From: Eretmocerus hayati
Lineage: Eukaryota; Arthropoda; Insecta; Hymenoptera; Aphelinidae
DNA length: 64,000 bases
NCBI GenBank assembly: GCA_029851415.1
Contig: CM056744.1
Span: 10,051,268 to 10,115,267, forward strand
Reading direction: 5' to 3'
A program made the translations under genes and the position numbers. Shown here in pieces: positions 9,965 through 61,034 of this stretch; the stretch's first letter is position 1; every line of letters starts with the position of its first letter. The notes beneath the pieces are model-generated. The model did not search any database. It was not told where the DNA came from and saw nothing but the letters and a program-made list of their open reading frames with translations.

Positions 9965-9978
9965 ATGAACCCGAGGCT

Positions 9979-13346: not shown

Positions 13347-13354
13347 GGTGGGGG
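13347..13354. repeat. Left 8-bp target duplication of the hAT-like element
   Basis: GGTGGGGG here equals 48121-48128, just outside the other end of the nested structure. An 8-bp duplication next to ends beginning CAGGG is the hAT signature. Confidence 0.75.
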
Positions 13355-16250
13355 CAGGGCTGCCAGATGGAATATTAAAAAAGACACGGCGAGAGGGGTA
13401 GCTCCCCCACTCTAGCGGCGTATCGGCGGCGGCGCGCGACTCGGAAAAACGATTCGCCGTGCAGCGCGCAGCAGAAGACAGCAAAGAGAACAGCCGACGA
13501 CTCGCGCGATGCTGTACTTATATATTTATGCTGGCAAATTTTTCTTGGAATAGGTTGATTTTTGATGATATTTATGTGTTTCAGTTTCTAGAATGTGGCC
13601 AATCTCGCCCTCATTCGGGCGGGACTCTCACTATTATCATCCTCGGGCCACTCAAATCCCACGAAAAGTGTTTTTTGATGATGGTAGGGTCTTGGTTTTC
13701 ACATTATTTTGTGAAAAGTGCTGAAGCAAAAAGTGGAAAGATGAACTTGTATATGTTTTTTGACAACAGAGTGTGAACACGTTTCTGGTGCTCAAAACTT
13801 AGTTTATCTTTTTCTGTGCCAATACTCAGTGGACCAGTTCTGTTATCCAAGTGCTGGTCCTGAAACAAATTCAAGAATGACATTCCATGAGACACTGAGT
13901 GTCACTTGATTTGACTTAAACAACAAAATACCTCCTCAATCTCAATCTGGTTTCGCATGAGTTTGGAACTTGATTCGCAGCTGAAATAAGGTTGGGGAGA
14001 TGACTTTTGGGAAGAACTGCCTCAATTGAAACAATTTCCTGTGTCTCTATGTGTTCCAAGTTCTCATATGAATATCCTGTCTTGAACACGTTTCTTACTG
14101 TTTTCTCCACTGTCGCAAGGTTTCTTTTAGTATATTCCATGACTCCAAACATGATAACGTTATAGGAGTATGATGGGATATTGTGCTCAGAATTCATGTA
14201 TCCCTGATGACGTCCACTCAATTCAATGAAATTGAGCAATATCATCACCATTCATGATTCAACCCTGACGTTTAATGAGGTACATACAGAAAGTGAACGG
14301 AATAAGACATCCTGATGAGCTCATAGTCCTTATGTAATATTTGAAAATAACTTGTGACTCAGTACAGAGAGGATTGGTATGATTTGCACTAGATTAGGAA
14401 TACTTTGAGATTAGCCCAGACCATAGAGATATATGGCCCAGACTGACTTTGGATTGAATAACAGTCAAAAGCAAAAGAAACAACCAGCCATAGCTAATTG
14501 CTGCAGCATTTTTCATACCTACAGTTCAGCAAAAACAGATACGGTTCTTACTTTCAGTTAGCCAAGGTAATCTTGTTAGAAAATGAAGTGATCTTCAGAG
14601 GTTGAATATAATGATCCAAGTCCATTACCTCATTTGCAAAAACATGTGATATATCTGAGTATACTCAGATGAAATTGTTCGGTTGTTATGGGTAAACATA
14701 TCAAATTCTAAATTCCAGAAAGCATTTGGAGGATCATGCATGAGCAACTCTTTTTCTCTGTTCAGGACTAGTTCAACCTCTTGATTGAAGTGAGATTGTA
14801 CACAACTTCATTCAATATGCAGTCAAAATTTCATTTTCCAGCTAGAATTTCTTGTATTTCCCAGAAGCTCCAGAGTTCAAGAATTCGGTAGACTTGAACA
14901 TAAGTGTACATTGTATTCCATGAGTAGAGGAATCGCTTACTCAACTCGAAAAGGGTAAATCGAAGATGGAAAAAAATCGTGAGTCGTTTTCAAAATATTG
15001 GTTTTGTACCATTATACTACAGAAAATAGTCAATTGGAAGATCAGAAAGACAGTCGAAACCGCGGAATTCTGTAATATTTGTAGTGGACCGGCTTTTTTC
15101 ATGTAGAAAAATCAATCTTTAATAACTGAAAGGTGGCACATTAACCCGTAAAATACCCGGATGGTCTGACCAAGAATTCTCTTTCGAAAGTAATCATCCC
15201 CAAAACCTAGGAAGGCGAATAAACCCGCATTTACCCGGAGTCTCGGACCGAAAGTTCTGCTGGGGGAATGAATCGACCCTTAAACCTAGGGAGGTGAATA
15301 AACCCGCGAATACCCGGACGCTTGGACCAAAAATCTTGCTTGGATAATAAATCATCCCCAAAACAGAGGAAGGCGGATAGACCCGCAGATGCCGGGATGC
15401 TCGGACTGAAAGTTCTGCTGTGTAAACAAATCGACCCTTAAACCTAGGCAGGCAAATGAACCCGCAAATAAATGAATTACACACAAAACCTAGGAAGGCG
15501 AATAAACCCGCAAATACCCGGATGCTCGGACCAAAATTCTGCGTACAAAAATAGATCACCCTCGAAAAAGAATCATCCCCAAAACCTAGGAAGGCAAATA
15601 ATCCCTCAAATACCCAGATGCTCGGACCGAAAGTTCTGCTGAGAAAATGGATTATCCACAAAACCTAGGAAGGCAAATAAATCCGTAAATACCCAGATGC
15701 TCGGACCGAAAATTCTGCTCAGAAAATGAACCACCTACAAAAACTAGGAAGGCGAATGAATCTGCAGATACTTACCCGGATGTCATCCAGGCCGAAAACT
15801 TTGCTTAAAAAATAAATCATCCTCGAAAACAAATAGCCCCAAAATCTGGAAATGCAAATAGATCCGCGGGTACCCGGATGCACTGATCGAAAATTCCACT
15901 TGGAATATCCCCAAAACCTAGAAAGTCAGATAAACCTGCAAATACCCGGATGCTCGGACCAAAAATTCTGCTTGGAAAATAAATCATGCTCAAAACCTAT
16001 TGAGGCAGATAAACCCGCGAATACCCGGATGCAATGATCGAAAATCCTACTTGAAAAACGAATCATTCCCCAGGACCTAATAGGAAGGCAGATAAATCCG
16101 CAAACACCTGGATGCTCGAACCGAAAATTCCGCTTGGAAAATAAGTCGTCCACAAAACCAAGGGCAAATAAACCCACATCTACCCGAAGGCTCGGACCGT
16201 AAATTCTGCTTGGAAAATGAATTTACCCCAAAACCTGGGAGGCAAATGAA
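13355..16250 (+). repeat. Left inverted arm of the hAT-like element
   Basis: Reverse complement of about 20190-22929 plus 48029-48120 at very high identity. The outer 1.7 kb is unique sequence with short open frames that occur twice in the window only because of the inverted repeat (for example 13916-14251 and 22125-22460). The inner part is the minisatellite. A possible splice acceptor precedes the frame at 13704-13895 (reverse strand, TTGTTTCAG), so the arm may once have held exons. At 13447-13455 it keeps the unoccupied target AAACGATTC of the 25-kb element. Confidence 0.85.
15195..16245. repeat. Minisatellite, ~79-bp unit, left copy
   Basis: Units begin AAACCTAGGAAGGCGAATAA and recur at 15203, 15282, 15362 and 15440, about 79 bases apart, for roughly a dozen imperfect copies. 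The conserved core is CCCGGATGCTCGGACC. The unit is near a multiple of three, which creates a long artificial open frame on the reverse strand (15194-15661). I do not treat that frame as a gene. Confidence 0.85.
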
Positions 16251-17089
16251 CAGATATCTATGTATACGGTTGCCGACGTTTTGTCAAGGAAAACACTAGT
16301 CGCCAATTCAGAAAGCTCTAAAAGGAGGAAATACCCGGATGATCGACATGGAAATTCTGTTTAGCTAACAGAGTATCCTGAATCTAGGAATGAGGTCAAA
16401 TCCGTGCGTGTGCCCGAGCTCTCTCAACTTGAGCAAGATAATACATTTTCACAACGCCCTGGATAGTCAATGTATAGAACCTGAATCCTAGATATTTTTC
16501 CTGAGACTATGATATCCTTCCAAGAAGGATGATGATCTGAAAAAGCCCAGCCGCATTCCAATCTGTGAGTTCTAGCGCACCCGAGCTTCGACTCTGAACG
16601 AGGAAAAAGACTCACACCATCCCTCGAATCGCAATCTTTCGAGGATATTCAAGCATGGGATTTTTCCTCGAGAGAATTCCTGGAAGACTTCTAAAGTATG
16701 TCATTTTACAATCGCGAGATCAAGGTGACTCGCCTCTGGAATTCAAATTTTCGACACGCCGTGAACATTTTTTCCTGGTTATCACTGAAATATAGTTGAG
16801 AGAAATTTGCTCAGATTTATGGAAATTTTAGCGGTTTATTCATTTTGAAAGGCCGATTTTTGCCTCTTCTCGTTGTTTCGATATTAGCTTATAGCTCGGA
16901 CATAGGTGCATCTTTGTGATACCACTTGGGCGTGTTGTTTTGTCATGCCCTACCCTTTCAAGGAAAAAATTGACTAATCACAAGAACTGATATGGTAGGT
17001 CTCATTGTGCTGCCTATAAAAAGCTCGAAAATGCGATTTTGCACCATCTCTGGAAGCGTATAGCTCAAAATGTATGCCTCATAGCGAAA

Positions 17090-17465
17090 GTCTGCATCAC
17101 AACAAATTGAAAGGTCTTCCCTGCTGAAAATAATTCCGTGGGACCCCACGGAATCCCGAGGGGTTCCACGAAGTCCCATGGGACTTCGTGGCTCCTGGCC
17201 CTGGAAAGATTTCCAATCTTGACAATTCAGAAATTTGGCATGCGCGACGTGCAGCATACAAATTTTGACCATTTCTCTCCCAGGAATGGTTGAATTTGGT
17301 CGATTATGGTCAAAGTTCGTATGCTACACGTCTCCAATGCCAAATTTCGTATAAAACAAGATTGGAAATTTTCCCAAGGCCAGGTCCCACAAAGTCCCAT
17401 GGAATCCCATGAAGTCCTACGGAATTATTTTCAGCGGGGTTGGAAAGACAGTTCATTTGTGTATG
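17090..17465. repeat. Foldback (MITE-like) inverted repeat
   Basis: The left arm read on the reverse strand and the right arm share GATTGGAAAT, GGCCAGG, GTCCCATGG and GGAATTATTTTCAGC in the same order, with several changes between. The loop is about 30 bases. No clean target duplication was identified. Confidence 0.6.
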
Positions 17466-18689
17466 TAACATTGTACGAGCTGCAGCCGATTGAAGTTACT
17501 CTTTTTGGAAAAACGTGAAATTTCAAGGCCAATTTCAAAAAATAGTTTCTTTCAATCGACCCCAAACCTATGATGAAATATTCTTTTAATCGTCTATAGT
17601 TGAAAGACCAACAATAGTATGAATGTACTGTGTAGATCCCGATTTTATACGAGCTGTTGAAAACAGTCGAAAATACCGAAGATTAAGCCGAATTTCAGCC
17701 TTCTCAGGACGCTTTGTGGGCGGAAACTTTTCTTGCTCTATTCGTGAACTCTGATTATACGGCACTTAGCATGAAATACTTTGGAGGAAAATGCCAAGAG
17801 CTAGAGGATGGCCTTTTTCACGATGTTCTACAATAAACCAGTCCAAACTTGAAGTAAATACGAGACAGACGGAAAATATCGAAAATACAAATAAATTGGG
17901 CCTTTCAACTCTGTGTGAAGGTGATTTCCTCCTGCCCCCCAGTTTCACGTCCTTGATCGTATGTCCCTTTCCAAAAATTACCCTGCGAAAAGTCAGTTCA
18001 ACATCTAGATAATGTTACCTTCACAGCATATAGTTCAGTAAGCAATTTGGCAATGAGAGCAAAAACAGGCAGAGATCTGACATGGTTTTGCGAGCCTTTT
18101 CCCAAGGAATTGCTAGCTGTCTTTTCCGGTTCCTTCTGAACTCAAGAATGTCTCATATCGAATTACGGGTGCAAATCTGCAAACCCCTCCCTAGCTCCGC
18201 CCATTCCCTCGTTCGCTTCATTTATGTATTTTTCTCTTGAAAATCATTTTATTGATTGTACACTGTGAAAATGTGCTCAAAAACCTCTGTACGTTTCTGT
18301 AAAAATGACCAACTCTAATCGGCTGGAGCTCGTACGGAAAATGAGATGATGACAAGTTTGAGAATGCAAATGCGAGGTCTTTTCGAGACAATTGTAATCG
18401 AGGCCACCCGAGATTGGTCGAAAGATACCACAGGCAATTTTCACACTTTACGCAATGGGTCGGAATCAATTTTTTTTTTTTTAGCGAAAGCAGCAAGATA
18501 TTTATTGGGAAAGAGACCTCTTACATTTTTGAGATAATGATCAAACTATACCACGGGAAAACATAGTTGATAAAAAAAAATGTAACCGATCAGTTCATTT
18601 ATACGTAGAGTGTCGACGCTGCGTGATTTGTACAGAATTCGCTGTCGAAGTTTCTAGGGCTATTCCAGTGAAGACCGTCCAATGTAGTA

Positions 18690-19882
18690 AGGTCAAACAA
18701 TCAGATTCCCTCTGCGATGGAGTATATGATTCTAGAGCTGAACTGACGCGACACGTGTTTTTTCGTTTAGCCCAGATCGACTTTGCATCGGAGCTATGCG
18801 AATTTCCAGTTTGGAGCCGAAAATTGAGATTGGCATTCTGAAATTGGTAGAAGTTCCACAACTTTGCTCCTAATGTGTCTTTTGAGATGTGGCTTGATGG
18901 GGGATATCAAACACAACATATTCTATCTGAATAGAATTCTATGGTGCTCAAAATTTTGCATAGAGTACAAAAAAGCGACAAATTGATGGAAAATGAAAAA
19001 ATGCAGTTACTCAAACACATAAATTCGTATCCCGTTGAATTATTTTTCTGAGAGTACTTTCAATTATGCTAAACATGATGAAATTGGTCCGATAAAAGGT
19101 GAGAACTTCGTGGGAGGCGCTAAGAAAATTTTCTGGAAGAAAAATTTTAAAAACCAAATAATTGTTGAAATTCGGTAAGGACTATTGTGGAAAGGTCTGT
19201 TTCCCCTTCCAAGAGTATCGTATTCCTTTGGAAGTGTCCCGAAATGATTAATGTCGGGATCTATTGCTAAATTCGGCATTTGGGTGATTACAGCTCAATT
19301 TAGCAATAGATCCCGAAATTGATCATCTTGGGACGTTTCCATGGGAATACGATACTCTTGGAAGAGGAAATAGACCTTTCCACAACAGTTGTTACCGAAT
19401 TTCAACAATAATTTGGTTTTTGAAACTTTCTTCCAGAAAATTTTCTTAGCGCCTCCCACGAATTTCTACCGCCTATCGAACCAATTTCACCATGTTTAGC
19501 ATAATTGAAAGTACTCCCAAAAAAAAATTCAACGGGATACGGATTTATGTTTTTGAGTAATTGCATTTTTTCATTTTTCATCAATTTGCCGCTTTTTTGG
19601 ACTTTATCCAAAAGTTTGAGCACCATAGAATTTTATTCTGATTGAATACGTTGTGTTTGATATACCCTATCAAGGCCCATCTCACAAGATCCATTAGGAG
19701 CAAAGTTGAGAAGCTCTGACCAATTGTAGATTGCCAATCCCAATTTTCGGCTCTAAACTGGGAATGCGTATACGGCTCACATTGCAAAGTCGATCTGGGC
19801 TGAACGAAAACACTAGTCACCTCATTTTAGCTCTAGAATCATATATTAGGTACTCCATCGCGGAGGGAATCATATTTTTGAC
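18690..19882. repeat. Long imperfect palindrome (~0.58-kb arms)
   Basis: The arms 18690-19273 and 19292-19882 are diverged reverse complements. The centre carries an inner pair reading CGGGATCTATTGCTAAATT and its complement. Matching landmarks include GAGCACCATAGAATT and the CCTCCCACGAA block. Such a structure is typical of a foldback or MITE element and folds into a long hairpin if transcribed. Confidence 0.75.
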
Positions 19883-20189
19883 CTTACTTATCTTGTACGG
19901 CTTTAGCTGGATTAGCCCTCTATCAATATCCACTAACTAGCTACAAATTTAATCTAATCTGCTAGTCTGACTTTTTTCCAATGCTATAGATCTAGTTTAT
20001 AATCCCGGTCGCTTTGAGAATGATTCTCTCAACAAAGGTGATATTTTCGGGGGAGGGTTCGTCACAATATGATATGGGACGTGTTGAGGAGATTTGGTTT
20101 TCGCATTTCCCCATCGAACGAGTTTAGGCCCAAGTATCAAAGCCCTTCAATGCGACTTCATTTGACCTCCCAATTGTTGGAAAAAATAT

Positions 20190-22929
20190 TTGGACAGAAG
20201 TTTCGGTCAGAGCACCTGAGTATTTGCGGGATCATTTGTCTCGCTACGTTTTGGGGATGATTTTTTTTCGAGGATCATCTATTTTCTAGGCAGGATTTTC
20301 GGTCTGAGCATCCGCGTTCTCGCGGGTTTATCTGACTTTCTAGGTTTTGGGGATCTTCCAAGTAGAATTTTCCATCAGTGCATCCGGGTACCCGCGGATC
20401 TATTTGCATTTCCAGATTTTGGGGGCTGTTTGTTTTCGAGGATGATTTATTTTTTAAGCATAGTTTTCGGCCCGGCCATCCGGGTAAGTAATCGCAGATT
20501 CATTCGCCTTCCTAGTTTTTATGGGTGATTCATTTTCTCAGCAGAATTTTGGTCCGAGCATCCGGGTATTTGCGGGTTTATTTGCCTTCCTATGTTTTGT
20601 GTGTAATTCATTTTCTCAGCAGAACTTTATTCGGTCCGAGTATCTGAGTATTTACGGGTTTATTTGCCTTCCTAGGTTTTGTGGATAATCCATTTCCTCA
20701 GCAGAACTTTCGGTCCGAGCATCTGGGTATTTGAGGGATTATTTGCCTTCCTAGGTTTTGGGGATGATTCTTTTTCGAGGGTGATCTATTTTTGTACGCA
20801 GAATTTTGGTCCGAGCATCCGGGTATTTGCGGGTTTATTCGCCTTCCTAGGTTTTGTGTGTAATTCATTTCCTCAGCAGAACTTTATTCGGTCCGAGCAT
20901 CTGGATATTTGCGGGTTCATTTGCCTGCCTAGGTTTAAGGGTCGATTTGTTTACACAGCAGAACTTTCAGTCCGAGCATCCCGGCATCTGCGGGTCTATC
21001 CGCCTTCCTCTGTTTTGGGGATGATTTATTATCCAAGCAAGATTTTTGGTCCAAGCGTCCGGGTATTCGCGGGTTTATTCACCTCCCTAGGTTTAAGGGT
21101 CGATTCATTCCCCCAGCAGAACTTTCGGTCCGAGACTCCGGGTAAATGCGGGTTTATTCGCCTTCCTAGGTTTTGGGGATGATTACTTTCGAAAGAGAAT
21201 TTTTGGTCAGACCATCCGGGTATTTTACGGGTTAATGTGCCACCTTTCAGTTATTAAAGATTGATTTTTCTACATGAAAAAAGCCGGTCCACTACAAATA
21301 TTACAGAATTCCGCGGTTTCGACTGTCTTTCTGATCTTCCAATTGACTATTTTCTGTAGTATAATGGTACAAAACCAATATTTTGAAAACGACTCACGAT
21401 TTTTTTCCATCTTCGATTTACCCTTTTCGAGTTGAGTAAGCGATTCCTCTACTCATGGAATACAATGTACACTTATGTTCAAGTCTACCGAATTCTTGAA
21501 CTCTGGAGCTTCTGGGAAATACAAGAAATTCTAGCTGGAAAATGAAATTTTGACTGCATATTGAATGAAGTTGTGTACAATCTCACTTCAATCAAGAGGT
21601 TGAACTAGTCCTGAACAGAGAAAAAGAGTTGCTCATGCATGATCCTCCAAATGCTTTCTGGAATTTAGAATTTGATATGTTTACCCATAACAACCGAACA
21701 ATTTCATCTGAGTATACTCAGATATATCACATGTTTTTGCAAATGAGGTAATGGACTTGGATCATTATATTCAACCTCTGAAGATCACTTCATTTTCTAA
21801 CAAGATTACCTTGGCTAACTGAAAGTAAGAACCGTATCTGTTTTTGCTGAACTGTAGGTATGAAAAATGCTGCAGCAATTAGCTATGGCTGGTTGTTTCT
21901 TTTGCTTTTGACTGTTATTCAATCCAAAGTCAGTCTGGGCCATATATCTCTATGGTCTGGGCTAATCTCAAAGTATTCCTAATCTAGTGCAAATCATACC
22001 AATCCTCTCTGTACTGAGTCACAAGTTATTTTCAAATATTACATAAGGACTATGAGCTCATCAGGATGTCTTATTCCGTTCACTTTCTGTATGTACCTCA
22101 TTAAACGTCAGGGTTGAATCATGAATGGTGATGATATTGCTCAATTTCATTGAATTGAGTGGACGTCATCAGGGATACATGAATTCTGAGCACAATATCC
22201 CATCATACTCCTATAACGTTATCATGTTTGGAGTCATGGAATATACTAAAAGAAACCTTGCGACAGTGGAGAAAACAGTAAGAAACGTGTTCAAGACAGG
22301 ATATTCATATGAGAACTTGGAACACATAGAGACACAGGAAATTGTTTCAATTGAGGCAGTTCTTTCCAAAAGTCATCTCCCCAACCTTATTTCAGCTGCG
22401 AATCAAGTTCCAAACTCATGCGAAACCAGATTGAGATTGAGGAGGTATTTTGTTGTTTAAGTCAAATCAAGTGACACTCAGTGTCTCATGGAATGTCATT
22501 CTTGAATTTGTTTCAGGACCAGCACTTGGATAACAGAACTGGTCCACTGAGTATTGGCACAGAAAAAGATAAACTAAGTTTTGAGCACCAGAAACGTGTT
22601 CACACTCTGTTGTCAAAAAACATATACAAGTTCATCTTTCCACTTTTTGCTTCAGCACTTTTCACAAAATAATGTGAAAACCAAGACCCTACCATCATCA
22701 AAAAACACTTTTCGTGGGATTTGAGTGGCCCGAGGATGATAATAGTGAGAGTCCCGCCCGAATGAGGGCGAGATTGGCCACATTCTAGAAACTGAAACAC
22801 ATAAATATCATCAAAAATCAACCTACTTCAAGAAAAATTTGCCAGCATAAATATATAAGTACAGCATCGCGCGAGTCGTCGGCTGTTCTCTTTGCTGTCT
22901 TCTGCTGCGCGCTGCACGGCGAATCGTTT
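20190..22929 (-). repeat. Right inverted arm of the hAT-like element (main part)
   Basis: Inverted copy of 13447-16250. The final 9 bases, GAATCGTTT (22921-22929), are the left copy of the target duplication made by the 25-kb element. The remaining 92 bases of this arm are found at 48029-48120. The minisatellite copy here spans about 20195-21220. Confidence 0.85.
20195..21220. repeat. Minisatellite, ~79-bp unit, right copy (inverted)
   Basis: Inverted counterpart of 15195-16245, with small insertions such as extra bases near 20628 and 20885 and a somewhat different number of units at its inner end. The open frame at 20679-21182 is produced by the repeat unit. Confidence 0.85.
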
Positions 22930-25900: not shown

Positions 25901-26173
25901 TTGGATCATGCTCGGTCAGCGCGGAGCTTGCAAGCTCTAAGGAAACATATGAAAACGCCCATGTTCCCTATCCGATCGTTGGCACTCACGACTGGCTATA
26001 CACATGAGACAAACGTTTAGCCTCCTTGCGAGAGCTGATCAAGCTTGCACTATTAATCGCAAGCTCACGGGTGAGAGCGGAAGCAAAATTCCGTCTTTGC
26101 GTTAAATAACAAAATTCACAAACGCGCTAATGCCTGTCGCATGTCATTATTTGCACATGAAATTAAAGCAATT
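22930..26173 (+). repeat. Left terminal inverted repeat of the 25-kb element
   Basis: Pairs with 42968-48019 at high identity. The last shared bases are AAAGCAATT (to 26173). Short frames here (23031-23222, 25406-25600 and others) recur inverted in the other arm. None has recognisable domains, so they are not called as genes. This arm has an extra block of about 440 bp (near 24586-25029) that the other arm lacks. Confidence 0.85.
24586..25029. repeat. ~440-bp insertion present in one arm only
   Basis: In the other arm ATTCCAATCCAT runs straight into AGAAGGGTATG (44107-44125, reversed). Here the same flanks are separated by about 440 bases. No clear terminal repeat or target duplication is visible, so I cannot say whether it is an insertion here or a deletion there. 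Confidence 0.6.
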
Positions 26174-27129
26174 ACATACTCGAAAAACGCCGCGGTAGTG
26201 CTTGAACTCTCGTAGCAACTCTCTGATAGAGTCCGCTCGAAAGTTCGCACTCACCTGATAGGGAAAATTGGAAAAATGACTAAAACTGGAAATATGACAA
26301 CGGCCTCCACGACAAGGCGGTGGGGGTAACGCGTAAAAACTCGAAAGAGTGTACGTTGGAAACAAATACAATACATACGGACATACACAAGGTGTGATTT
26401 AAAATAATTCCCAGGGAGCGTTGTAAACCAAGGGTAAAATTTATAGGGGTACCATTCGATAGGTCTCGGCGAACAGAATAAGACAGATAGGCCCTCATTT
26501 TCTTAAGGCTCGAACTAGGGGGTGAGAAAATTGAAAAAAATTTCAAGCAAACATTTCCGCACCGATACAATACTTTCTCTTATAGAAAGTAATAAGCACT
26601 CGAAGCCTAAATTATATGTACCATACTACTTGATTTGGAATGGCTCATGTTCCAAAATGAAGACACCAGAATATTCCTTGGTAGCTGTTCTTCAAAGATT
26701 TTTGATAAATTGATGAAAAAACGATGAAGCACTCTCCGAGAAAGACTACACTGTAAAAATTTTTTCGAAAAACTTAGTTGAACCATTTGGTTGAAAATTC
26801 AACCAAGTGGTTGAACATTCAACGAGGAGGTTGACGGTCACCGGACAACATTTTTGGCTAAGAAAGGCGAATTTTTTGGTGTTTTCGTGTGTATTAAACG
26901 GCTAGAAAAAATCATCACAGCATCGGTGGCCGTGCGAGCTTTATCGCTTTAGAATGCAGGTCAAGCAACGTTGTGATTCATTATCCAGATTGGTGACCGC
27001 TCTGGTGCATGAGGCTGTCGAAGGGGTATGAGTAGTACCGTGGAAACTTTGCAATAATGTGTGCCTGCTCGTAAAAACCCTTAAAACGCTTGAGAAAAAA
27101 ACCTCAAAGGTCTTTTCCGAAGTGTTTTT

Positions 27130-33785: not shown

Positions 33786-33870
33786 ATGATCCGATCAAGC
33801 CGCGCACACATGGTTCTACCCATTGACCCTTGTCCCACTAGACACAGTAGAACAGATTTTCCATTTGCAG

Positions 33871-34371: not shown

Positions 34372-34375
34372 TTAT
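34372..34375. repeat. Target duplication of the Gypsy element (TTAT)
   Basis: TTAT directly outside the left LTR equals TTAT at 40453-40456 outside the right LTR. Four bases is usual for Ty3/Gypsy integrases. Confidence 0.75.
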
Positions 34376-34787: not shown

Positions 34788-34846
34788 TTCGGCCATCCTA
34801 CGCGAGCTTGGTCCTCCAAGCTTCCAGATAGAAGGTGTAAAAAAAT

Positions 34847-37800: not shown

Positions 37801-39577
37801 GCTCTTCAGATGGATCTGAATTCAAAAGTAGAACGCGGTCATTTAAACATTCATCAGAAGAAAGTGTGATTTCCTTATCACTTGGATTATAAAACGGTAT
37901 TTCAAATGTTTCACCACAAGATTTGACTTGAATGAATTTCATCGAAGCTGGTCCGATACTGATAGATTCATCGGATGCCACATCAAAAACGTCACTTTGC
38001 TCAACATTCGCTTCCGGATAAATAGAAAACAATTTTTCATTCTGAACAAATTCGAAAACATCGCCACTCTTATAATACGAAACATGGGGTAAGTCTGTAA
38101 AAGTCCTCCCTATAATTATGTCACACGGTTGCACATCATCAGGCACAACGCGAAAAATTATATCGTCCGCCGTACACTGGTCAACAGTCAATGTGCCACG
38201 CACTATTCCGCTTGATTTGACTTCATTACCGGATTTTCCAAATCCAACTAAAATACTAGAAATCGGTATAAATTTGAGCCCGTGCTCAAGCATAACTGAC
38301 GCCTTAATTGTGCAGTCGGAGCTGCCAGGATCAACTAGACTTTTGAGTCCTTGGGCCTCATCTAACTTAACAATTTTTACATACTTAGACACTGTCTTAT
38401 GCCCATCCGGCGCAACAAATTTCATTTCCGCTTCTGGCAATTTCACAGAATTTTCAGATTTCGGACAAAATTTCGCGATATGACCCGGTCCACCGCACGT
38501 ATAGCACGTCGTCTCACGCTTCTTAGTACAGTATTTAGCGTAATGCCCTTTTTCTGAGCATCGGTAACACGTATCACTTTTCACAGAACTTTCGGCACTC
38601 GCGTTTGATTGACCGGCACTACCCTGCTGGTTGCTTCGCTGAGTTGTCGTTGAACTGCTGTCCGCCCTGCCGCTAGTTGTCGCTGCTGTCCCGGGAGCTT
38701 TCCTTGCTGCACCAATCCTATCGGAGCGCGCCGATTCAAGCGCTTCGAAACTGACAATGAACTGCCTCAGCTCATTTTCGTTGGCGTAGCTTCTGTTCAT
38801 AATTGCTGCACTGGTACTTCGAGACCACACACCCATGGCTACTTGAATTTTTATTTCGTCCATTCCAAAATTCAAAGCTTTACAGAGCCGCACTTTGTCG
38901 AAAAAATATTCCGTGGTATTCTCTTTTGGTCCTTGGATGCGACGCTGCATCTCTTCAAACCGCTCTGTCAGGGTTTTTTCTATCAAAAAGGCATCCTTGA
39001 ACTCCGCTCGAAATGTTGCCCAGTCCTTAATTTCGTCGATCATTCCGAGATACCAATTTTTCGCCGCCTGTTTGAGGTGGCTGCGTGCGGTTTCGAACGC
39101 TACCGCTTCCGTCCATCGGTGGAGAGTAGCTGTGGACTCAAGCTGCTTCAGCCAAGCTCGAGCGAATGCGGAACCCTCCACACCGGTAAAATTCTCGATA
39201 TTATGCGACAAGTCCGGCAGCACACTGTATGTCGTGTTTACCTGCCCTTGCTGTTGCTGAGCCTGCTGCGCTTGAAACTGTCCCTCGATCAGCCTCGTCA
39301 CGGCCGTCATAAGCTGCATCATCTCTGGCTGCATCCCGGCTTGTGGCTGTGGCATACCGGCATGCGGTTGCTGGAAGTGCTGTTGATGCATATCCCCCTG
39401 TTGTTGCAAAAATTGCTGATGTTGTTGTTGCTGCTGCTGTTGTATCTCAAACTGATTTTGTTGCTGCTGCTGGAATTCATACAACGTTCTCGCAGCATTT
39501 CTTTGTTCTAAATCTGACTGTTGTCGAGCTTCTCGGGCTTTGCGTGCCGCCGCATTGCGCTCTTGTTCTGGCGTCAT
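34847..39577 (-). CDS. Gypsy Gag-Pol polyprotein
   Basis: A single 1576-residue frame. It has a glutamine-rich N-terminus (residues ~30-110), then a Gag retrotransposon domain. Two CCHC zinc knuckles follow, starting near residues 337 (CYRCSEKGHYAKYC) and 357 (CYTCGGPGHIAKFC). The protease-like motif LVDPGSSD has aspartate 416. Reverse transcriptase has the catalytic pair in CVDDACIF (D807, D808), then RNase H (HTDASCDG). Integrase has an HHCC finger, DHLGPF (D about 1236), TDRG and the glutamate of NGLVERLNQ, and a GPY/F-like tail ends with an acidic C-terminus. Two motifs are unusual: DPG instead of the common DTG/DSG in protease, and cysteine before VDD where tyrosine or phenylalanine is usual. 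Gag and Pol are fused without a frameshift. Confidence 0.93.
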   Translation of the reverse strand: MTPEQERNAAARKAREARQQSDLEQRNAARTLYEFQQQQQNQFEIQQQQQQQHQQFLQQQGDMHQQHFQQPHAGMPQPQAGMQPEMMQLMTAVTRLIEGQFQAQQAQQQQGQVNTTYSVLPDLSHNIENFTGVEGSAFARAWLKQLESTATLHRWTEAVAFETARSHLKQAAKNWYLGMIDEIKDWATFRAEFKDAFLIEKTLTERFEEMQRRIQGPKENTTEYFFDKVRLCKALNFGMDEIKIQVAMGVWSRSTSAAIMNRSYANENELRQFIVSFEALESARSDRIGAARKAPGTAATTSGRADSSSTTTQRSNQQGSAGQSNASAESSVKSDTCYRCSEKGHYAKYCTKKRETTCYTCGGPGHIAKFCPKSENSVKLPEAEMKFVAPDGHKTVSKYVKIVKLDEAQGLKSLVDPGSSDCTIKASVMLEHGLKFIPISSILVGFGKSGNEVKSSGIVRGTLTVDQCTADDIIFRVVPDDVQPCDIIIGRTFTDLPHVSYYKSGDVFEFVQNEKLFSIYPEANVEQSDVFDVASDESISIGPASMKFIQVKSCGETFEIPFYNPSDKEITLSSDECLNDRVLLLNSDPSEEPIRRPIVENDVNVGPNVTPDQIRGLLAMLNDYRECIALDESELGCTDLIEMDIEEKPGSQPVYSRAYKASAEQREAMRKIFAGYRQAKIFEDTTSPYGSPCMLVKKADGSWRLVVDFRRLNNNTVRKVFPIPPFDDGLEFLHGACLFITLDLAQGFLQVPLSEAAKAKTAVVTPDDRGQFTRSIFGLMNAPVYFAELMYKVFGHLRNRIMLICVDDACIFALIWSQLMQRFEIVLIELKKAHLTLNLKKCYFGVEEVEYLGLRISKDGIGPGSKKIVAIREFPTPRNILEVRRFHGMASFFRRFVPNFAKLAAPLIDLLKKNNTFVWSDRQDEAFRAIKEKLSSSPILAHYNPKSNRTEIHTDASCDGLGAMLLQEGNDKLMHIVYAISRRTSDVEKAYHSSKLELLAIVWALDRLRNLLISIPFTVITDCQALIYINSMKQKSPQIIRWLASIADFDYTIIHRAGEKMQHVDALSRAPVEECGVSLDDATMFNVTVREDEILMYQRIDDDLLRKIQILEKNVSDRTKREKSEVHEFVLKNGLLYKRERTGDGPDDYKDFYVVPRAMRKALVIKNHDLSSHFGVDKTVDRIKEFYYFPKMRNYVRRHIASCVECLLAKHKAGKQAGELHPIPPGKRPFEVMNVDHLGPFVTSKLGNKYILAAICNLTRFALLFAVKDVKAKTTVRHMQKVVDRFGAPVRFITDRGVAYASEVFEKFCNENGIKHTLNSSRHPQANGLVERLNQTILPALKANLIDFDGLDWDKNLGKIERDLNTSVNKTTGRTPFEMLYGYIPRFKDGLARDLTVDSEQYKIPGELRDEIREKIEVEQHNSKERYDKSRVKNVKFSVGDIVFMKANRVATGESTKLQPKNKGPLVITQVLPSDTYRVQSLSKKVDLKQGTTAHVSQLRIWRGCPIEDGDNSESESESEDEIVVQNDSVMSGDDESANDNDEQAQNAVSTSNATDVRRSLRQRKKPSKLDDFVSD

Positions 39578-40040
39578 CGTGAGTTTGCCTTATGTCACGA
39601 GCGCAACAAAGATCATCAGCCGCACGACGCTAAGTACTCGTCACCAAAAGCGACCCTAAGGTCCACCCGCTCGCAAATTCCAGCGAGGCGCCAACCCGCT
39701 CGTTATCGTCTGCCGCTCGGCGCGTGCGAGATTTCACACTTTCACTGCCGCGTGCATGTACCAACTTGCACACACTTGCTTTATACCAGCGAAGAAAAAA
39801 AATTTTACACTATTTTCACGATAGTCACTCAATTTTCTACGATAGTCAATATTGTCCGTTTTCCCAAATTTAATCGAGAAGCTGATAACACACACAAAAG
39901 CTCAACTATACTCGAAAATTGCCGATTCGATATTGCGGCGCACGTGCCAACCGTTTCGGAGCAACAAGTATTTTGCTCCAAAATTTCACTTTTTCTTACA
40001 CTTCCTTGTGGGCACTGTCGTTGCTATCCCACTTCTGAGT
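39578..40040 (-). other. Gypsy 5' leader
   Basis: Untranslated leader between the 5' LTR and the Gag-Pol start, 463 bp. It includes the candidate primer-binding site at its LTR-proximal end. Confidence 0.7.
40014..40031 (-). promoter_or_regulatory. Candidate primer-binding site of the Gypsy element
   Basis: On the coding strand TGGGATAGCAACGACAG begins nine bases inside the LTR. It starts with TGG as needed for tRNA CCA pairing, but the tRNA was not identified and the spacing is somewhat long. Confidence 0.3.
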
Positions 40041-40452
40041 TGTTAGAGACACTTCTGTCTCTAAGAATAACTCAGAAGATTCACTCAAATAAAAGTATTT
40101 ATTCAACTAAGTACAGGATCGTTCACGAGCTACCGGCACTATTGCCACACAATCAGATACAATTAAATTGGGTACGGCACCTTGCCACTAAATATTATAC
40201 GGCACACTTGCCACTAAACTAAGTACACAACGGCCTTCGCCCAACTTGTCGGCTCCAGGAGCCCTCGATACCCGTTCACCAGGTCACGGCCTTCGCCCGC
40301 CGCCCGTACTTGATCGCGGCCCGCCAAGTTCTCCCGAGCCTCCCTCGCGCGCACGCACTCGTCCATCCGGTGGCGCCGCCACTCCATACGCACATACACA
40401 TATATGTCGCCCTATACGCATACATATACTTGTGGACATACTCTCTCTAACA
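40041..40452 (-). repeat. 5' LTR of the Gypsy element
   Basis: Equal in length to the other LTR, with no difference noticed by eye. It would drive transcription toward lower coordinates. Confidence 0.93.
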
Positions 40453-40485
40453 TTATTTATCGGCTGATCTTCAACTTGTGACCAA

Positions 40486-42575
40486 AATTGAGGGGGTGGG
40501 TGGAAAAAGGGCGTAATTGCAAAACGGTCATTTTGAGAAAATCTATAAAAACTTAATAAAAACCGCTACAGACATAATTGGACGAGTAGACCTGACTTAT
40601 TTCGAAGAAAATAACATTCTCGAAATAGCCCAACCCGATCTGGGGTGTGAAATTTGATTTTGAGCTTTTTTCAGCGATTTCAAAAAATGCAATTACGCCC
40701 TTTTTCCGAATACAGGGTCAAACTTCGGCCTTTCTTCCTCACAAAAAGTGGTATAAAATCTCGAGATCAAGTCCACTTGCCTCCAAATTTTTTGAGAGTG
40801 TTCCTGGGCATGTTTTGTAAGATATCTGATTGCTAGGGGGTGGTTCGATTCATGCTCCACGGTTCTATGGACACGAAAAGCTTCCATCAGTCGTGTGGAA
40901 ATGACGAGAATTTTTTTTCACTATGGAAGGTTGAAAACACTCAATTTGAAGGTAAAACAACATGTTTCCATCGTTATATTAGGTGGAAAAGCGTTTCCAG
41001 GCTCTGGAGGATTTTTATAAAATTTTTCCTCGGTGATTAGGGCCTTTTTCCAGATCCGACCTCACTTACGCCCTGTTACAGAGTAACTACGCCCTTTTAA
41101 ATCTTTTCAGTCAGGTACTCAAGCCCTTTTTCCAAATCCTGTCGGGCTGAGAAAAAAGTTAAGCCCTTTTGAAATTTTTTGGGTGCAATTAAGCCCTTTC
41201 TGAAAAGAATGACCAATGTCACGCCGTTTTGAAATTCTATCACAGCAGTTACGCCCTTTTGAAATTTTATCATAGCAGTTACGCCCTTTTGAAATTTCAT
41301 CATGGCAGTTACGCCCTTTTGAAAATTCATCGTAGCAGTTACACCCTTTTGAGTTTCCATCATAGCAGTGACGCCCTTTCTGGAATCACTGGTGTCAGTG
41401 AAGCCCTTTGAAGCTCAAATCATCGTGGTTACGTCCGTTCAAAATGTTTTGGCAGCAATTAGGCCTTTTATGAATTCAATTATGTTGTTAAGCCCTCGTG
41501 AGATTCGATTACAGCATCGTACTTTTTGGAGAAAAAGTTAGAGTTCATGAAATTAGGAATGAGTCAACTCTCGGAGGGAGGAAAATGCCAAAACATCCAT
41601 GGCAATCAAGACAGAGGGATCAAGAACCTGTTTTAAAAGTTACTGAAAAAAGTGATTTACACATACTTTTATCAACCGACGTTGACAGTTGGGAATCGAC
41701 ATGGAAGACATAAGGTACTGGAGACTTTTTAAAGAATAACCCATAGAAAGTGCTCAAGATCCATTAACGACCTAAGGAAAGATGTTCATGTTTTTGGAAT
41801 ATTTATACAAGTCGAGCTCTAAAAGGTCATGTAGGTGTATTTGTTTCACAAAATCATTTCAAAATTAGATTTTGCGACTCTAGTCACAAATAAGTAGTCA
41901 TCAGTCTGACCTGTAAAGCTAACTTTATTTTCGGGAATTTCCCAGGCGAAATAGGACTTCTCCAACTATCGGTGAATATTTATACTGATTCATTCGTTTA
42001 TATTCTGATTATACAGGTTGACGTTGATTAAATCATTTGTAAATATGAAGAGAATCTGATCAACCAAGAAATCAGTGGAAAGTTCACCAACTTGAAATTT
42101 ACATTTGCTGATCCCTGAAACCCTCAATTGACCGAAATTCTACCCATCGAGGCCTAACTCGACACCCCTTAGCAGTGGGTGTCACTCTGCTTTCGCAGAT
42201 AAACAGGACTCACGGGGCCTTGCATCTGTATTTTCCACGCGCCATGGCGCGATATTCGGAAAAAGCTCGGGAAAAAGGGCGTAGGTGCAATAATTTTCCC
42301 GATATAAGGGCATAACTGTCGTGATATTCGAAAAAAGGGCATAAGTGCAATCATTTTGCTGATGAAAAGGGCTTAAGCTCCATTAAGCCCTTTTATCGGG
42401 CAGAAAAAAGGGCGTAATGGCGGTTACGCCCTTTTATCTGCCAGACCGTTTTTGGGGTCTTTCAAGAAACGGATTTCGGGGGGTGGTAGATCTTGGTACG
42501 GAGGCTCGAAAAAAGCGGTATCCGGAAGAAGGGCATAATGGCGGTTACGCCCTTTTTCCACCCACCCCCTCAATT
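40486..42575. mobile_element. 2.1-kb foldback element with internal GCCCTTTT repeats
   Basis: Perfect 31-bp terminal inverted repeats (40486-40516 and 42545-42575) begin AATTGAGGGGGTGGGTGG. Inside, TTACGCCCTTTT or its complement recurs dozens of times. A tandem array with a unit of about 40 bp lies at about 41086-41480, and inverted copies lie near both ends. There is no transposase frame, and I could not fix the target duplication. It lies in the same intron as the Gypsy, only 29 bases past that element's right target copy. Confidence 0.8.
41086..41480. repeat. Tandem array, ~40-bp unit, TTACGCCCTTTTGAAA
   Basis: About ten imperfect units of roughly 40 bases, each with GCAGTTACGCCCTTTTGAAA. 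The array lies inside the foldback element. It generates meaningless repetitive open frames on both strands. Confidence 0.8.
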
Positions 42576-42689
42576 GTATCTCAGAATTTTCCGGACCTCA
42601 TTCACTTACACTGTTGATTTCATCCTCATTATTCATTGTTAACAATAATTATTTTTAAGTGCAAGGAATGTATTAATTTTGGTGCGTAG

Positions 42690-42811
42690 GCCGTGTGTTT
42701 ACACACGTGGATGCTATGGATTATGGTGAAGAATTCGTTATGGGCGATTGTCAAGACTCAAAATTTGTTCAGTTTTTCGTTCATTACAGCCCGACTGATT
42801 GTTATTGCTGA
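42690..42811 (+). CDS. USP-like protein, exon C (last exon)
   Basis: After the acceptor GGTGCGTAG, the first two bases GC complete the codon begun by the last base of exon B (giving GGC). An open frame of about 40 codons then follows and ends at TGA 42809-42811 (it includes DAMDYGEEFVMGDCQDSK). The intron from exon B is 8.65 kb. Taking out the Gypsy (with one target copy) and the 40.5-kb foldback element leaves only about 0.48 kb, a normal insect intron length. That size, together with the phase match, supports this linkage. Confidence 0.5.
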
Positions 42812-42967
42812 TTAGCGATAGTCGGACTTGATTACGTTGATTCATAATTGAAACCAACCACACGGTTGAGGACTATTCCTCATAGCCTTTCATTATAATC
42901 AGGGTCAGAACAATCGGATTCGAGTGTATTGTACGTGTTATCTAACTGAATCAGAGAATATTTTACG

Positions 42968-45900
42968 AATTGCTTTAATTTCATGTGCAAATAATGACAT
43001 GCGACAGGCATTAGCGCGTTTGTGAATTTTGTTATTTAACGCAAAGACGGAATTTTGCTTCCGCTCTCACCCGTGAGCTTGCGATTAATAGTGCAAGCTT
43101 GATCAGCTCTCGCAAGGAGGCTAAACGTTTGTCTCATGTGTATAGCCAGTCGTGAGTGCCAACGATCGGATAGGGAACATGGGCGTTTTCATATGTTTCC
43201 TTAGAGCTTGCAAGCTCCGCGCTGACCGAGCATGATCCAATCAACGCTTGAGCCCAAGTTTGTGGGAAGCGTCGAACAGAAAGATTATATTAGAATAGCT
43301 GCTCGACTGAGTCGACTGCTATTGAACAGGAGGAGAAGGGTGATAGGAAGCAGGAAAAGTACAAATATTTTCCATCACTTTATCCAGTAAGATTCTTTGC
43401 GTGCTTGCAAGCAGGTTAGTTTGAGATTCCACATCTCTGGCGAAATGATCAGCTCTGGATCGCGTATGGAGTCTTACTGGTTTTGAGATTAGTTTGCTAC
43501 TTTCCAGAAATCTCAGGCTATATTTTGTTAGTTTACGGATTCAAAGTTCCCTGGGTTTTGAGAGTTTTCTCTCATCATACGTTAGATGAGCAAGTAGGAA
43601 ATGATTACTCAGATCCATTTTGTAGTATACGAAATCATGGTTCTGGAATAGCCAAATAAATTTCATGAATTCTCTAAATGGGAAAGAGTTTCTTACAGGA
43701 TGAGATTCTTGTAATTGAGATAGGAAGAATGTCATTTTTCTCATTCAAAATGAGAAAACTGTTAGGATTAAGAAGAAATGACACTCAAATTGAGCAACTT
43801 ATTTTCTCACAGAGTACGAAAGAACAACCAAGAAACTCATTGACACGCATTGCTTTTTATAAAAAATAGATTACGTAAAGTAGGGCGGTTACACGTGATT
43901 TTCAATTTTCAAGTTCCCTTTATGATTTAATTAACCCTGCACCAAACTTGGGATATATGCTAAAAAGCCTTTTCTGAGTACTGGAAAATAAACGTCCTTA
44001 CGATTGCGGCCATTTTCATGATGTCCTTGTGGTTGTATAAAAAAAGGTAAGGGGTAGGCGGTGCGTGTTATTTGAGATGACGATTACAAACGAGTTCCTT
44101 GACATACCCTTCTATGGATTGGAATTTTGTTGGGTGTACAAAAAGGCACTCCTATAGTTTTTCTCTTTGGATTTCAAGAATTTTAGTCTTGTCTCAAGCA
44201 CCAGTGAAGCAAAGAAGTTCTATCTCGAAGAGTTCCACTCTTGAAAGTTGTGTAAGTGAACAGCCTCAGAAAGTCATTCAATGTGATTTTTACTGCTTTT
44301 TCATTGGCATGATGGAAAGAAATTCCTGCAAAAGGGTTGAAATAAAGGGCGATATCAAACTAGATCCTTGTATGGGGCCCAATATTTCAAGCCATGCTAG
44401 CTGGTCGATCAGCCTGCCACTTCACTCCATGATTGAATAGTTAAGAGTGATTGTCCCGGCACTTGATTAACAAGATAAACTATCATTGATCCGACCATAT
44501 CTTTTAGATTCCAGTGTCACACTCTCAACTGTCTACCCAACATTTCTCTCCAATACCACAGTAATTTCTGAATGTCTATCTCCAGTTGCATTTAATTTGA
44601 GGATTTGTATGTGAAACTATGAGAATATTTACAGACGTAGTTTTGAGTGATTCAATGTGTAACAGATTTTTCTGAAACTGATGGATGAGAAGAAGTAGGA
44701 GGAAGTTGCCATTGAGTGGTCCATAGAACTACCCCTCATCCGCACAGTCATAAAGGATAGTCATTACTTTTAACATTGCTGCAAATAAGTGTTCAAAAAC
44801 TAATCAATCGCTGATACAGAACCCTCAATTCCATAGTAATCCACGCCTGATGTTATCTTAATAAAACCGCTCTCTCTTCATGTGTGGTGGCAACTTCATA
44901 ACTTAAATCAGAAGAGATCTTGCAAGATTTCATTCACCTTTTGGTACTATTTCATGATCCTTGTCAGAGATCTGGTACTCGTGGTCAGAGTCGACAGAGA
45001 TGCCTACAATAATTTCAATGGAACAACAGCCTCCACGGTGCTGAGAAATCAATCAATCACAAGAGGATCCTGTGCACTCAATAAAAGGCCACAATAAAAC
45101 TATCTCAAACTTTCTGACTGATTGATAATAAAGATGGACTCTCATTTTCGCTGTTGGATCTCTACCCAGAGAGCACCTCCTCTATATCGGCTGCCCAGGG
45201 AATATTCCAGGACAGTCAAGGACAGTGCTAGTCCAGAAGTAACGCAGCATAAAGTTGGCCGAAAAAGTATCTATTTTTATTCGACGTCTGTTTATAAACA
45301 ACTAGCAGAAGACAATGCCGTCAATTCCCGTTTTCACGTTTTCAGGGCCCGTAAAAACCCCGTGGAACCTACGTTATTCAACTACCTAGAAAAAATCTGA
45401 AAAAATTCATACAGGTCAATTACATTAGCCTCCACTCAGAAATCTTGTCCGTAGAATTACCTCCACTTTTGTTTATTTATAATAAATGAAACAACAATTG
45501 CGTTACTCCGACGGCGATAACTCCTCACAGGTATAGTTCAAAGCTATGGTTGTGGTGTCAAATAATTACTCCAGCGCCAATAAAATTTCCTCCACCCTTA
45601 CATTCCATAAAAATTGATTGATTTGTTCATAATTAACGATAAACATCATTCGGCCATTGAGCCTCGTCAGGTGGCCTCTGCGCATGCGTCACCCAGCAGA
45701 AGAGAGACTCTCGGGCATCAGGCGACAACACGGCTGCCGCATCGCGGCCGTTTACGTGCCGTAACGGTTCTCGGGACCACTCAAGACCTTGCGAGAGCAA
45801 GCACAAATTGGCAACAACTTTGTCAGGTATAGAAATTCCAAAAAGTGATTTAGATAGAAAAAAAAAACCTTATTCCGAAAACGCGTTCCAAAAAAACACC

Positions 45901-48019
45901 TTACTCCTGTATTTTTAATAATTAATCGATGAATATGCGCATATCATTCCATGCTGCGTGGTTTCCCTGCGGCTCGTACTGAGAAGCAAGTACGAGAGCA
46001 AGTAGCTTTAAAAGATTCCAATTTCCTCAATAAAAATTCCTCCTCCACAGTTTTGCGATTTGATAATTTGTTTTGCTGCAATTCATACAAATTCATCCCA
46101 CCCATCAGAGTTCAGATCACCAGCTATATTACATTGCGTGATCTACGTGGTGATCTGGACTTCAGGTGTGATGAATTATTATATGAATTCTGGAACAACA
46201 AATTGTCGGATCCCAAATTTGTGAAGGAGGAGTTTTTATTAGAAGAATTGGAATGTTTTGAGTCACTTGCGTGTCGGTGCGAGCATACAGCGTTGAATGC
46301 AATGCGCATAGCCATTGATTAATTATAAAAAATATAGGAATAAGGAGTTTTTTTGAAACGCGTTTTCGGAATAAGGTGTTTTTTACTATCTAAATCACTC
46401 TTTAGATTTCCTATACCCGACAAAGTTGGTGCCAACTTGTACTTGCTGATATTTTCCAGCGTATCAAGGCAACGAGGTGAGCGGCCTCGCCTCGCTCTCA
46501 AGGGGTAAGCACAAGTTGGCACCAACTTTGTTAGGTATAGAAATTCCAAAAAGTGATTTAGATAGAAAAAAAACACCTTATTCCGAGAACGCGTTCCAAA
46601 AAAACACCTTACTCCTGTATTTTTAATAATTAATCGATGAATATGTGCATAGCACTCCATGCTGTGTGGCTTCCCCGTAGCTCGTACCGACACGCAAGTA
46701 GACTTAAAAAATTCTAATTCTCCTAATAAAAACTCCTCCTTCACAGTTTTGTGATCCGATAATTTGTTGTTTTACAATTCATGTAATAATTCATCACACC
46801 TGAGGCCCAGATCACCACAAGGATCACGTAATGTAGTACAGCTGGTGATCTGGGCTTCAGGTGTGATGAATTATTATATGAATTGCGAAATAAATAATTA
46901 TCGGATCCCAAAACTGTGAAGGAGGAGTTTTTATTAGGAAAATTGGAATTTTTTAAGTCTACTTGCGTGTCGGTACGAGCTATACAGGGAAGCCACACAT
47001 GGAGTGCTGTGCGCATATTCATCGATTAATTATTAAAAATACAGGAGTAAGGTGTTTTTTTGGAACGCGTTTTCGGAATAAGGTTTTTTTTTTCTATCTA
47101 AATCACTTTTTGGAATTTCTATACCTGACAAAGTTGTTGCCAATTTGTGCTTGCTCTCGCAAGGTCTTGAGTGGTCCCGAGAACCGTTACGGCACGTAAA
47201 CGGCCGCGATGCGGCAGCCGTGTTGTCGCCTGATGCCCGCGAGTCTCTCTTTCTGCTGGGTGACGCATGCGCAGAGGCCACCTGACGAGGCTCAATAGCC
47301 GAATGATGTTTATCGTTAATTATGAACTAATTAATAAATTTTTATGGAATCTAAGGGTGGAGGAAATTTTATTGGCGTTGGAGTAATTATTTGACACCAC
47401 AACCATGGCTCTGAACTATGCCTGTGACGAGTTATCACCATCGGAGTAACGCATTTGTTGTTTCATTTATTATAAATAAACAAAAGTGGAGGTAATTTTA
47501 CGGACAAGATTTCTGGGTGGAGGCTAAAATGATAGACCTATATGAATTTTTTCAGATTTTTTCTAGGTAGTTGAATAACGTAGGTTCCACGGGGTCCCGT
47601 AAAATCAGGAAATCAGGGGCTAATCAGGAAAAATGCGACAGTTGGCTACCATGACCCAGCATACTGCGCATGATCGTGGCATCGACCTCCACTCGAGCGG
47701 GAAGTTGGAGTCTACAATCTCGTTTTTTATAAATTTTCAATGAATTTTGCGAATTCCACAGAAATTCCAACGGACGCTGATGGAGCACTCAAAAATCTAT
47801 CGATCTGTCTTTCTAAATTATTTTTTTGATGCGTTAAGCCAACAGAAGTGGCGATTGACTTTGGGATGGGAGGTCTCAACTTATTTTGCGAATAACTCGA
47901 AAAGGAGGCAGGGAGCATGAAAGTTGCACATAAGTGTCTTTGATCCGCTATAACAGAGCAATCTTTGAGTGTAATTGGTTTTACTTGGTTCTGACCTCGT
48001 CCGCTAACTTCCTGGAGCC
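42968..48019 (-). repeat. Right terminal inverted repeat of the 25-kb element
   Basis: Inverted match of 22930-26173, lengthened by a 2.24-kb insertion at 45357-47595. Outside that insertion the arms match closely (for example 43678-43869 against 25272-25463). Confidence 0.85.
45357..47595. mobile_element. Mutator-like foldback element with verified empty site
   Basis: The ends begin ACCCCGTGGAACCTACGTTA, and the inverted repeats extend over about 0.55 kb. The 9-bp CCCGTAAAA occurs at 45348-45356 and 47596-47604. In the other arm of the 25-kb element the same site (23345-23353, reversed) has one copy and no insert, proving insertion boundaries. Inside, a module starting GGTATAGAAATTCCAAAAAG occurs four times in alternating orientation (about 45830, 46440, 46535 and 47120). 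Open frames such as 45951-46322 and 46741-47022 derive from this module. No transposase was seen. Confidence 0.85.
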
Positions 48020-48120
48020 GAATCGTTTTTCCGAGTCGCGCGCCGCCGCCCATACGCCGCTAGAGTGGGGGAGCTACCCCTCTCGGCGTATCTTTTTTAA
48101 TATTCCATCTGGCAGCCCTG
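48020..48120. repeat. Outer tip of the hAT-like right arm
   Basis: 101 bases matching 13355-13455 in reverse at 98 positions. It includes the right copy of the 9-bp duplication (48020-48028). It is separated from the rest of its arm by the 25-kb insertion. Confidence 0.85.
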
Positions 48121-48128
48121 GGTGGGGG
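48121..48128. repeat. Right 8-bp target duplication of the hAT-like element
   Basis: GGTGGGGG, equal to 13347-13354. It lies ten bases inside an intron, measured from the donor at 48139. Confidence 0.75.
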
Positions 48129-50619: not shown

Positions 50620-50624
50620 AAATC

Positions 50625-61012: not shown

Positions 61013-61034
61013 GGCTCGTTGTGCAAACTCACCT

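What the first reader, a model, noticed from the sequence alone, without database searches (positions are those of the whole stretch)
13347..48128. Nested DNA transposons that can be dated by target duplications inside one window
The outer hAT-like element has an exact 8-bp duplication and inverted arms. Its right arm is split 92 bp from the tip by a 25-kb element with its own 9-bp duplication. The intact left arm carries the unoccupied site (13447-13455). Inside the 25-kb element sit a Gypsy, a 2.1-kb foldback, a Tc1-type MITE and a Mutator-like element that again has an empty site in the opposite arm. The insertion order is thus readable without any outside genome.
Basis: partly seen in the sequence, partly recalled or inferred. 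Interest (0 to 1): 0.85.

Follow-up and report, generated by a model that had tools for sequence, protein, structure and literature searches.

The report
Giant wasp transposon inside another
In a parasitoid wasp genome one mobile DNA element was split by a second, and that second one is a shortened copy of an unusually large (about 39.5 kb) DNA transposon family; the nesting itself is ordinary, the size of the family is not.

Summary
The nest is real. The outer element (13355-48120, 8-bp duplication GGTGGGGG) is split by an inner one (22930-48019, 9-bp duplication GAATCGTTT); the intact left arm keeps the empty site 13447-13455. The host is the aphelinid wasp Eretmocerus hayati.

All 8 other two-armed copies of the inner element found have the same end bases and exact 9-bp duplications. 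A second outer copy is uninterrupted at the insertion point.

Two claims weaken. The hairpin 26174-29808 has no empty-site pattern. It and the Tc1-type MITE lie in a stretch of equal length in six other copies, so they are probably old family parts. Arm divergence is not a usable clock.

New: inner copies measure 9.7-39.5 kb. Two copies (39,508 and 39,510 bp, different insertion sites) hold a 915-aa open frame. The window copy is that form minus about 22.8 kb, plus a Gypsy and a 2.2-kb foldback. Transposase and superfamily remain unidentified, because almost none of the 39.5-kb copies could be read.

The parts
13347..13354 (.). left copy of the outer 8-bp target duplication GGTGGGGG
13355..48120 (.). 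outer hAT-like foldback element with all its guests; 9667 bp net of the inner element and its duplication
13355..16057 (+). left arm of the outer element (its inner part is an array of 79-bp repeats)
13447..13455 (-). unoccupied target site of the inner element in the left outer arm
20282..22929 (-). right arm of the outer element, proximal part
22921..22929 (.). left copy of the inner 9-bp duplication GAATCGTTT
22930..48019 (.). inner element, internally deleted member of the 39.5-kb family
22930..26173 (+). left arm of the inner element (about 430 bp at 24593-25024 are absent from the right arm)
26174..29808 (.). hairpin stretch; no duplication, no empty site; probably an old family part
27938..28859 (.). 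Tc1-type MITE between TA dinucleotides; probably an old family part
32395..32398 (.). junction of the internal deletion (22,759 bp lie here in both 39.5-kb copies)
32389..32991 (+). 200-aa open frame; its residues 20-200 match the end of a 915-aa frame in the 39.5-kb copies
34376..40452 (-). Gypsy retrotransposon, LTRs 34376-34787 and 40041-40452 identical
42968..48019 (-). right arm of the inner element, interrupted by the foldback
45357..47595 (.). foldback element with 9-bp duplication CCCGTAAAA
48020..48120 (-). outer tip cut off by the inner element; its first 9 bases are the right copy of GAATCGTTT
48121..48128 (.). right copy of the outer 8-bp duplication

Best explanation
A hAT-like foldback element without a recognised transposase carries in its right arm a member of a DNA transposon family whose full size is about 39.5 kb, with arms of about 3 kb and 9-bp target duplications. 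The window copy lacks about 22.8 kb of the middle and has received a Gypsy and a small foldback. Shown: ends, duplications, empty sites, the same ends in nine copies, two 39.5-kb copies at different sites, the deletion junction, a 915-aa open frame in both large copies. Inferred: that a transposase, the family's own or another element's, cuts the element out and reinserts it; that the shortened copies arose by internal deletion, as in incomplete repair after excision; and that the spread was recent. Whether the deletion came before or after this insertion is not known.
For: Eight of 8 other two-armed copies have exact, mutually different 9-bp duplications. Tip arms of the nine copies are 98-100% identical to the query over 427 bp. 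The core blocks that adjoin in the window lie 22,759 bp apart in both large copies. Window length minus Gypsy and foldback plus that gap gives 39,516, against 39,508 and 39,510 observed. The frame ends a 915-aa open frame in both large copies. A second outer copy is uninterrupted at the site.
Against: No transposase was recognised. The 150 scored MULE places (of 253 candidates) lie outside the nine copies, KDZ gave none but its control did not ring, and the 200-aa pieces have no Pfam match. Of the 39.5-kb copies I read 600 bases and four 24-base ends. The age statement rests on identity percentages and scores, not on reading the copies.
Confidence: 0.87

Rival explanations
1. The 39.5-kb form is a non-autonomous element swollen by insertions before it spread, and is moved in trans, for example by one of the genome's MULE transposases.
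For: The genome holds many MULE-type places (150 scored), none in the nine copies. Parts of the core (about 30175-31459 and 33057-33708) match dispersed repeats at 78-87%, so guests were on board before the spread. The terminal G/C bases and 9-bp duplications suit MULEs (PMC13359780, passages; duplication length as in PMC3169594).
Against: A 915-aa frame is open in both large copies, and a 64% relative of the gene lies about 4 kb inside a 72% relative of the arm at C4:47423593, so the gene belongs to the lineage. Not decisive against this rival.
Confidence: 0.45
2. The nest is an assembly artefact between near-identical copies.
For: Nine near-identical inner copies exist, which can confuse assembly.
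Against: Exact duplications at both levels; the published assembly used PacBio HiFi at 693-fold with contig N50 7.96 Mb (PMC10482854, passages).
Confidence: 0.03
3. The composite was formed elsewhere and moved here as one 34.8-kb unit, so that the duplications order the nesting but not the arrivals at this locus.
For: The duplications alone do not exclude it.
Against: No second copy of the composite: the one other outer copy found is empty at the site, and the eight other inner copies have other flanks. An excised source would leave no trace, so this is weak.
Confidence: 0.1

Closest known systems
Tetris, foldback transposon of Drosophila virilis (PMC4079207, passages)
   Same: Non-autonomous, long arms made of an outer domain and internal tandem repeats (there about 220 bp, here 79 bp), middle without recognised coding capacity, as in the outer element.
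   Different: Arms there up to 1,735 bp and duplications of 8-10 bp; here about 2.7 kb and 8 bp. Unrelated host; sequences not compared.
Galileo (PMC2775673, section 10 part 1 and passages; PMC4168063, passages)
   Same: Arms over 99% alike within copies 1 and 2 and about 7% apart between them, the pattern of the outer element here.
   Different: P superfamily, 7-bp duplications; its copies 4 and 5 are chimeric and show the opposite pattern.
Tm1, Mutator/Foldback family of root-knot nematodes (PMC3169594, passages)
   Same: Composite inverted arms, mostly 9-bp duplications, full and reduced forms, nested guests read by their duplications.
   Different: Elements mentioned in the passages are small (about 1 kb, some with a transposase); here up to 39.5 kb.
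Arthropod MULEs (PMC13359780, passages)
   Same: Target duplications and G/C-rich tips; E. hayati is named there as having complete MULEs.
   Different: Complete elements there reach 9,972 bp (Hymenoptera 2,172-4,113 bp) and arms 1,193 bp in the text (1,527 in a table row); here 39.5 kb and about 3 kb, and no MULE domain found.
Teratorn (PMC10175614, start of the abstract in a search listing)
   Same: A very large mobile DNA element.
   Different: 180 kb, piggyBac fused with a virus; nothing viral was recognised here, but most of the inside was not read.

Membership tests
hAT superfamily (outer element) | 8-bp target duplication | tested here: met
   GGTGGGGG on both sides; that 8 bp and CAGGG-type ends mark hAT is recalled
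hAT superfamily (outer element) | hAT transposase | tested here: inconclusive
   no transposase match in the outer frames that I scanned (one ERF match below its cut-off); the genome search for PF05699 did not complete
MULE / Mutator superfamily (inner element) | target duplications of about 9 bp | tested here: met
   9 of 9 two-armed copies exact
MULE / Mutator superfamily (inner element) | MULE transposase domain (PF10551) inside the element | tested here: inconclusive
   none of 150 scored places lies in the nine copies, but 103 of 253 candidates were not scored
KDZ transposons (inner element) | KDZ domain (PF18758) in the genome | tested here: inconclusive
   0 matches, 1 candidate scored, and no control genome rang
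Foldback-type architecture (both elements) | arms of kilobase length, internal tandem repeats | tested here: met
   arms about 2.7 and 3 kb; 79-bp repeats in the outer arms; no such array was reported in the inner arms
Tc1-type MITE (27938-28859) | TA on both sides and inverted ends CACTAC | tested here: met
Ty3/Gypsy (34376-40452) | reverse transcriptase, RNase H, then integrase in one frame, between LTRs | tested here: met

The most novel reading that the evidence does not exclude
The inner family is an autonomous 39.5-kb cut-and-paste DNA transposon of an undescribed lineage. Its 915-aa protein is part of its own machinery, it moved very recently, and it sheds internally deleted forms of 9.7-28 kb, as Ac/Ds or P/KP do, but at about four times the length of the longest complete arthropod MULE in a recent survey.
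Probability: 0.3. Interest if true: 0.75.

Novelty: new variant of a known kind. Interest (0 to 1): 0.5.

Why it matters
Reading nested order from target duplications is standard practice. A 39.5-kb DNA transposon with at least nine near-identical insertions, full-size and deleted copies side by side, is not, and would let one test how large a cut-and-paste element can be and how deletion derivatives arise. The locus also warns against dating long-armed elements by arm divergence: the outer family's arms are homogenised within a copy, and the inner family's arms look like fixed left and right types.

Tried and rejected
Arm divergence as a clock: rejected. Outer arms differ at 4 of 2023 positions in 13447-15469, inner arms at 41 of 2803 (Fisher p 2e-6), which would make the older element look younger. 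This holds only without the 79-bp repeat part of the outer arms: 28 further mismatches lie at 15644-15974, and over the whole alignment the outer count is 32 of 2530, close to the inner one (I made no test on that).

Outer tip (3 of 101) against the rest of the arm (4 of 2023), p 0.003: at first read as homogenisation stopped by the insertion. Weak: two of the three changes are 4 bp apart and may be one event, and the end of the homogenised tract is only bracketed. By my reading, two of the changes are derived in the left tip and one in the right.

Inner arm differences are patchy (longest identical run 870 bp, p 2e-5; variance/mean 2.3, p 0.002); conversion in the family's past is a guess. 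The 430-bp arm difference at 24593-25024 has no clean duplication; insertion or deletion undecided.

Hairpin 26174-29808 as a nested guest: rejected.

Fetching 20 stretches of C4 (10 around the window, 10 at 10-Mb steps), with three of C1, gave only dispersed-repeat matches to 13000-48500: 5 rows, matches from L001-L003 dropped beforehand. Structure of the 200-aa frame: mean pLDDT 31.8, so no fold search. PDB sequence search: one match at E 0.79. Homologues: one for the frame, none for the 200 aa before it. Short frames: weak matches below cut-offs only. Rfam: none. In one search the left tip of outer copy B does not align reliably and was left out of the tip comparison.

Full report
Host. The window is C4:10051268-10115267 of a 692,130,109-base genome in 17 contigs. 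A protein hit named as Eretmocerus hayati lies on a contig of 122,604,546 bases, the length of C4, and the published assembly is 692.1 Mb from PacBio HiFi, Illumina and Hi-C (PMC10482854, passages). The source is therefore E. hayati, a parasitoid of whiteflies.

The nest. The outer element runs from 13355 to 48120 with GGTGGGGG on both sides, the inner one from 22930 to 48019 with GAATCGTTT on both sides, 92 bp from the outer tip. The left outer arm holds the unoccupied site at 13447-13455. Inside the inner element are a Gypsy (34376-40452, LTRs of 412 bp identical, TTAT) and a 2239-bp foldback (45357-47595, CCCGTAAAA) with its empty site in the opposite arm at 23345.

Other outer copies. A 1001-base arm query gave 41 matches (40 of 66 candidates scored): three in the window, three pieces of one other copy at C4:65267592-65284780 (two near-full arms at 88-90% and one short piece), and 35 short ones. 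Both arms of that copy B run through the inner insertion point without interruption; its right end is intact, its left tip eroded. Over 13456-14420 the arms differ by 3 of 965 within the window copy, 31 of 954 within B, and 70-74 of 938-952 between copies. Of the variable sites, 55 separate the copies, 31 are private to one B arm, 3 to one window arm, and none groups same-side arms of the two copies. Arms are thus homogenised within each copy, as printed for Galileo copies 1 and 2 (PMC2775673, section 10 part 1).

Other inner copies. A 427-base tip query gave 44 matches (40 of 43 candidates scored): 18 form nine pairs of inverted arms, one is a single partial arm (369 of 427), and 25 are diverged (66-84%). 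Lengths are 9,690, 12,733, 14,104, 20,486, 21,730, 25,090 (window), 28,372, 39,508 and 39,510 bp. All eight outside the window have exact, mutually different 9-bp duplications and the same terminal bases. In all eight, one arm scores 753-762 bits and the other 739-744 against the window's left arm, whose own partner scores 744. From these scores, not from reading the copies, I infer fixed left and right arm types. That would explain why the inner arms are 41 of 2803 apart without great age.

Full-size element. The core 29808-34374 gave 95 matches (only 40 of 2116 candidates scored). Query bases 1-2587 and 2592-4567 adjoin only in the window; in both 39.5-kb copies they lie 22,759 bp apart. Window length minus Gypsy and foldback, plus this gap, minus the four junction bases gives 39,516. 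From left end to core start the distance is 6858-6882 in six other copies and 6878 in the window, so the hairpin and the MITE in that stretch are most likely ancestral; lengths, not letters, were compared. From core end to right end it is 5299-5328 in four other copies and 5316 in the window net of its two guests; a fifth (C3:161.8 Mb) has 9236 and so carries something extra. The 9.7- and 12.7-kb copies gave no core match among the candidates scored.

Coding. The window frame 32389-32991 matches 14 places (30 of 30 candidates scored). In both 39.5-kb copies its residues 20-200 belong to a 915-aa open frame without stops; two shortened copies have 841 and 867 aa. A 64% relative with one stop lies at C4:47427679, about 4 kb inside a 72% relative of the arm at C4:47423593. 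No Pfam match was found for the frame, the 200 aa before it, or its E. hayati relative. Its end reminds me of a ubiquitin-specific protease; that is a recalled impression which no call supports. The 150 scored MULE places (253 candidates) all lie outside the nine copies. KDZ gave nothing, without a positive control.

Mechanism. Exact 9-bp duplications and clean, constant ends point to a transposase acting at the two tips; this is inference. Shortened copies beside full-size ones fit incomplete repair after excision (general knowledge). Whether the 39.5-kb copies make their own transposase is open; transport in trans is the main rival.

Literature. Searches. A survey of arthropod MULEs that names E. 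hayati gives complete elements up to 9,972 bp (Hymenoptera 2,172-4,113 bp; PMC13359780, passages). The E. hayati genome papers (PMC10482854 and PMC13116730, passages) report repeat totals and recent Gypsy bursts; the passages that I saw name no such transposon. I did not see this family described in these searches; most subscription papers, supplements and Repbase were not searchable.

Verdict. The nest is real and its relative order readable, but that alone is ordinary. The inner element's family deserves the attention.

Noticed in passing
window 4127-6652 (+): 841-aa open frame with reverse transcriptase and GIY-YIG domains; the pairing is that of Penelope-like elements (recalled).
   Followed up: no
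window 6920-11761: Direct repeats of about 1.1 kb, 99.8% identical, 3.7 kb apart, with TATC on both sides, G+C-rich middle with 482- and 210-aa frames and no Pfam match: an LTR-like element of unknown kind.
   Followed up: partly
window 50595-53666 (+) and 58148-61072 (-): Two long ankyrin-repeat frames (1023 and 974 aa) with weak PRANC matches at their ends, below the curated cut-off; PRANC-ankyrin genes of bacterial origin are reported in Nasonia (PMC6161386, listing only).
   Followed up: no
window 41158-41487: Array of 30-bp repeats inside the inner element.
   Followed up: no
L001 1496-1522 and L032 1501-1559: Other elements share only the last 27 or 59 bases of the outer tip, which suggests a wider family of elements with the same tips.
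   Followed up: partly
C1:7731888-7744965, C1:173736967-173749954, C1:193759181-193772535, C2:146882733-146895936, C4:84046408-84059600: Five pairs of diverged inner-type arms (66-71% to the query; short extra pieces to 80%), each pair about 13.0-13.4 kb apart: perhaps a related family of uniform size.
   Followed up: no
window 27027-27590: Dispersed repeat inside the inner element, also at window 127-597 and in two fetched stretches, L010 and L013.
   Followed up: no
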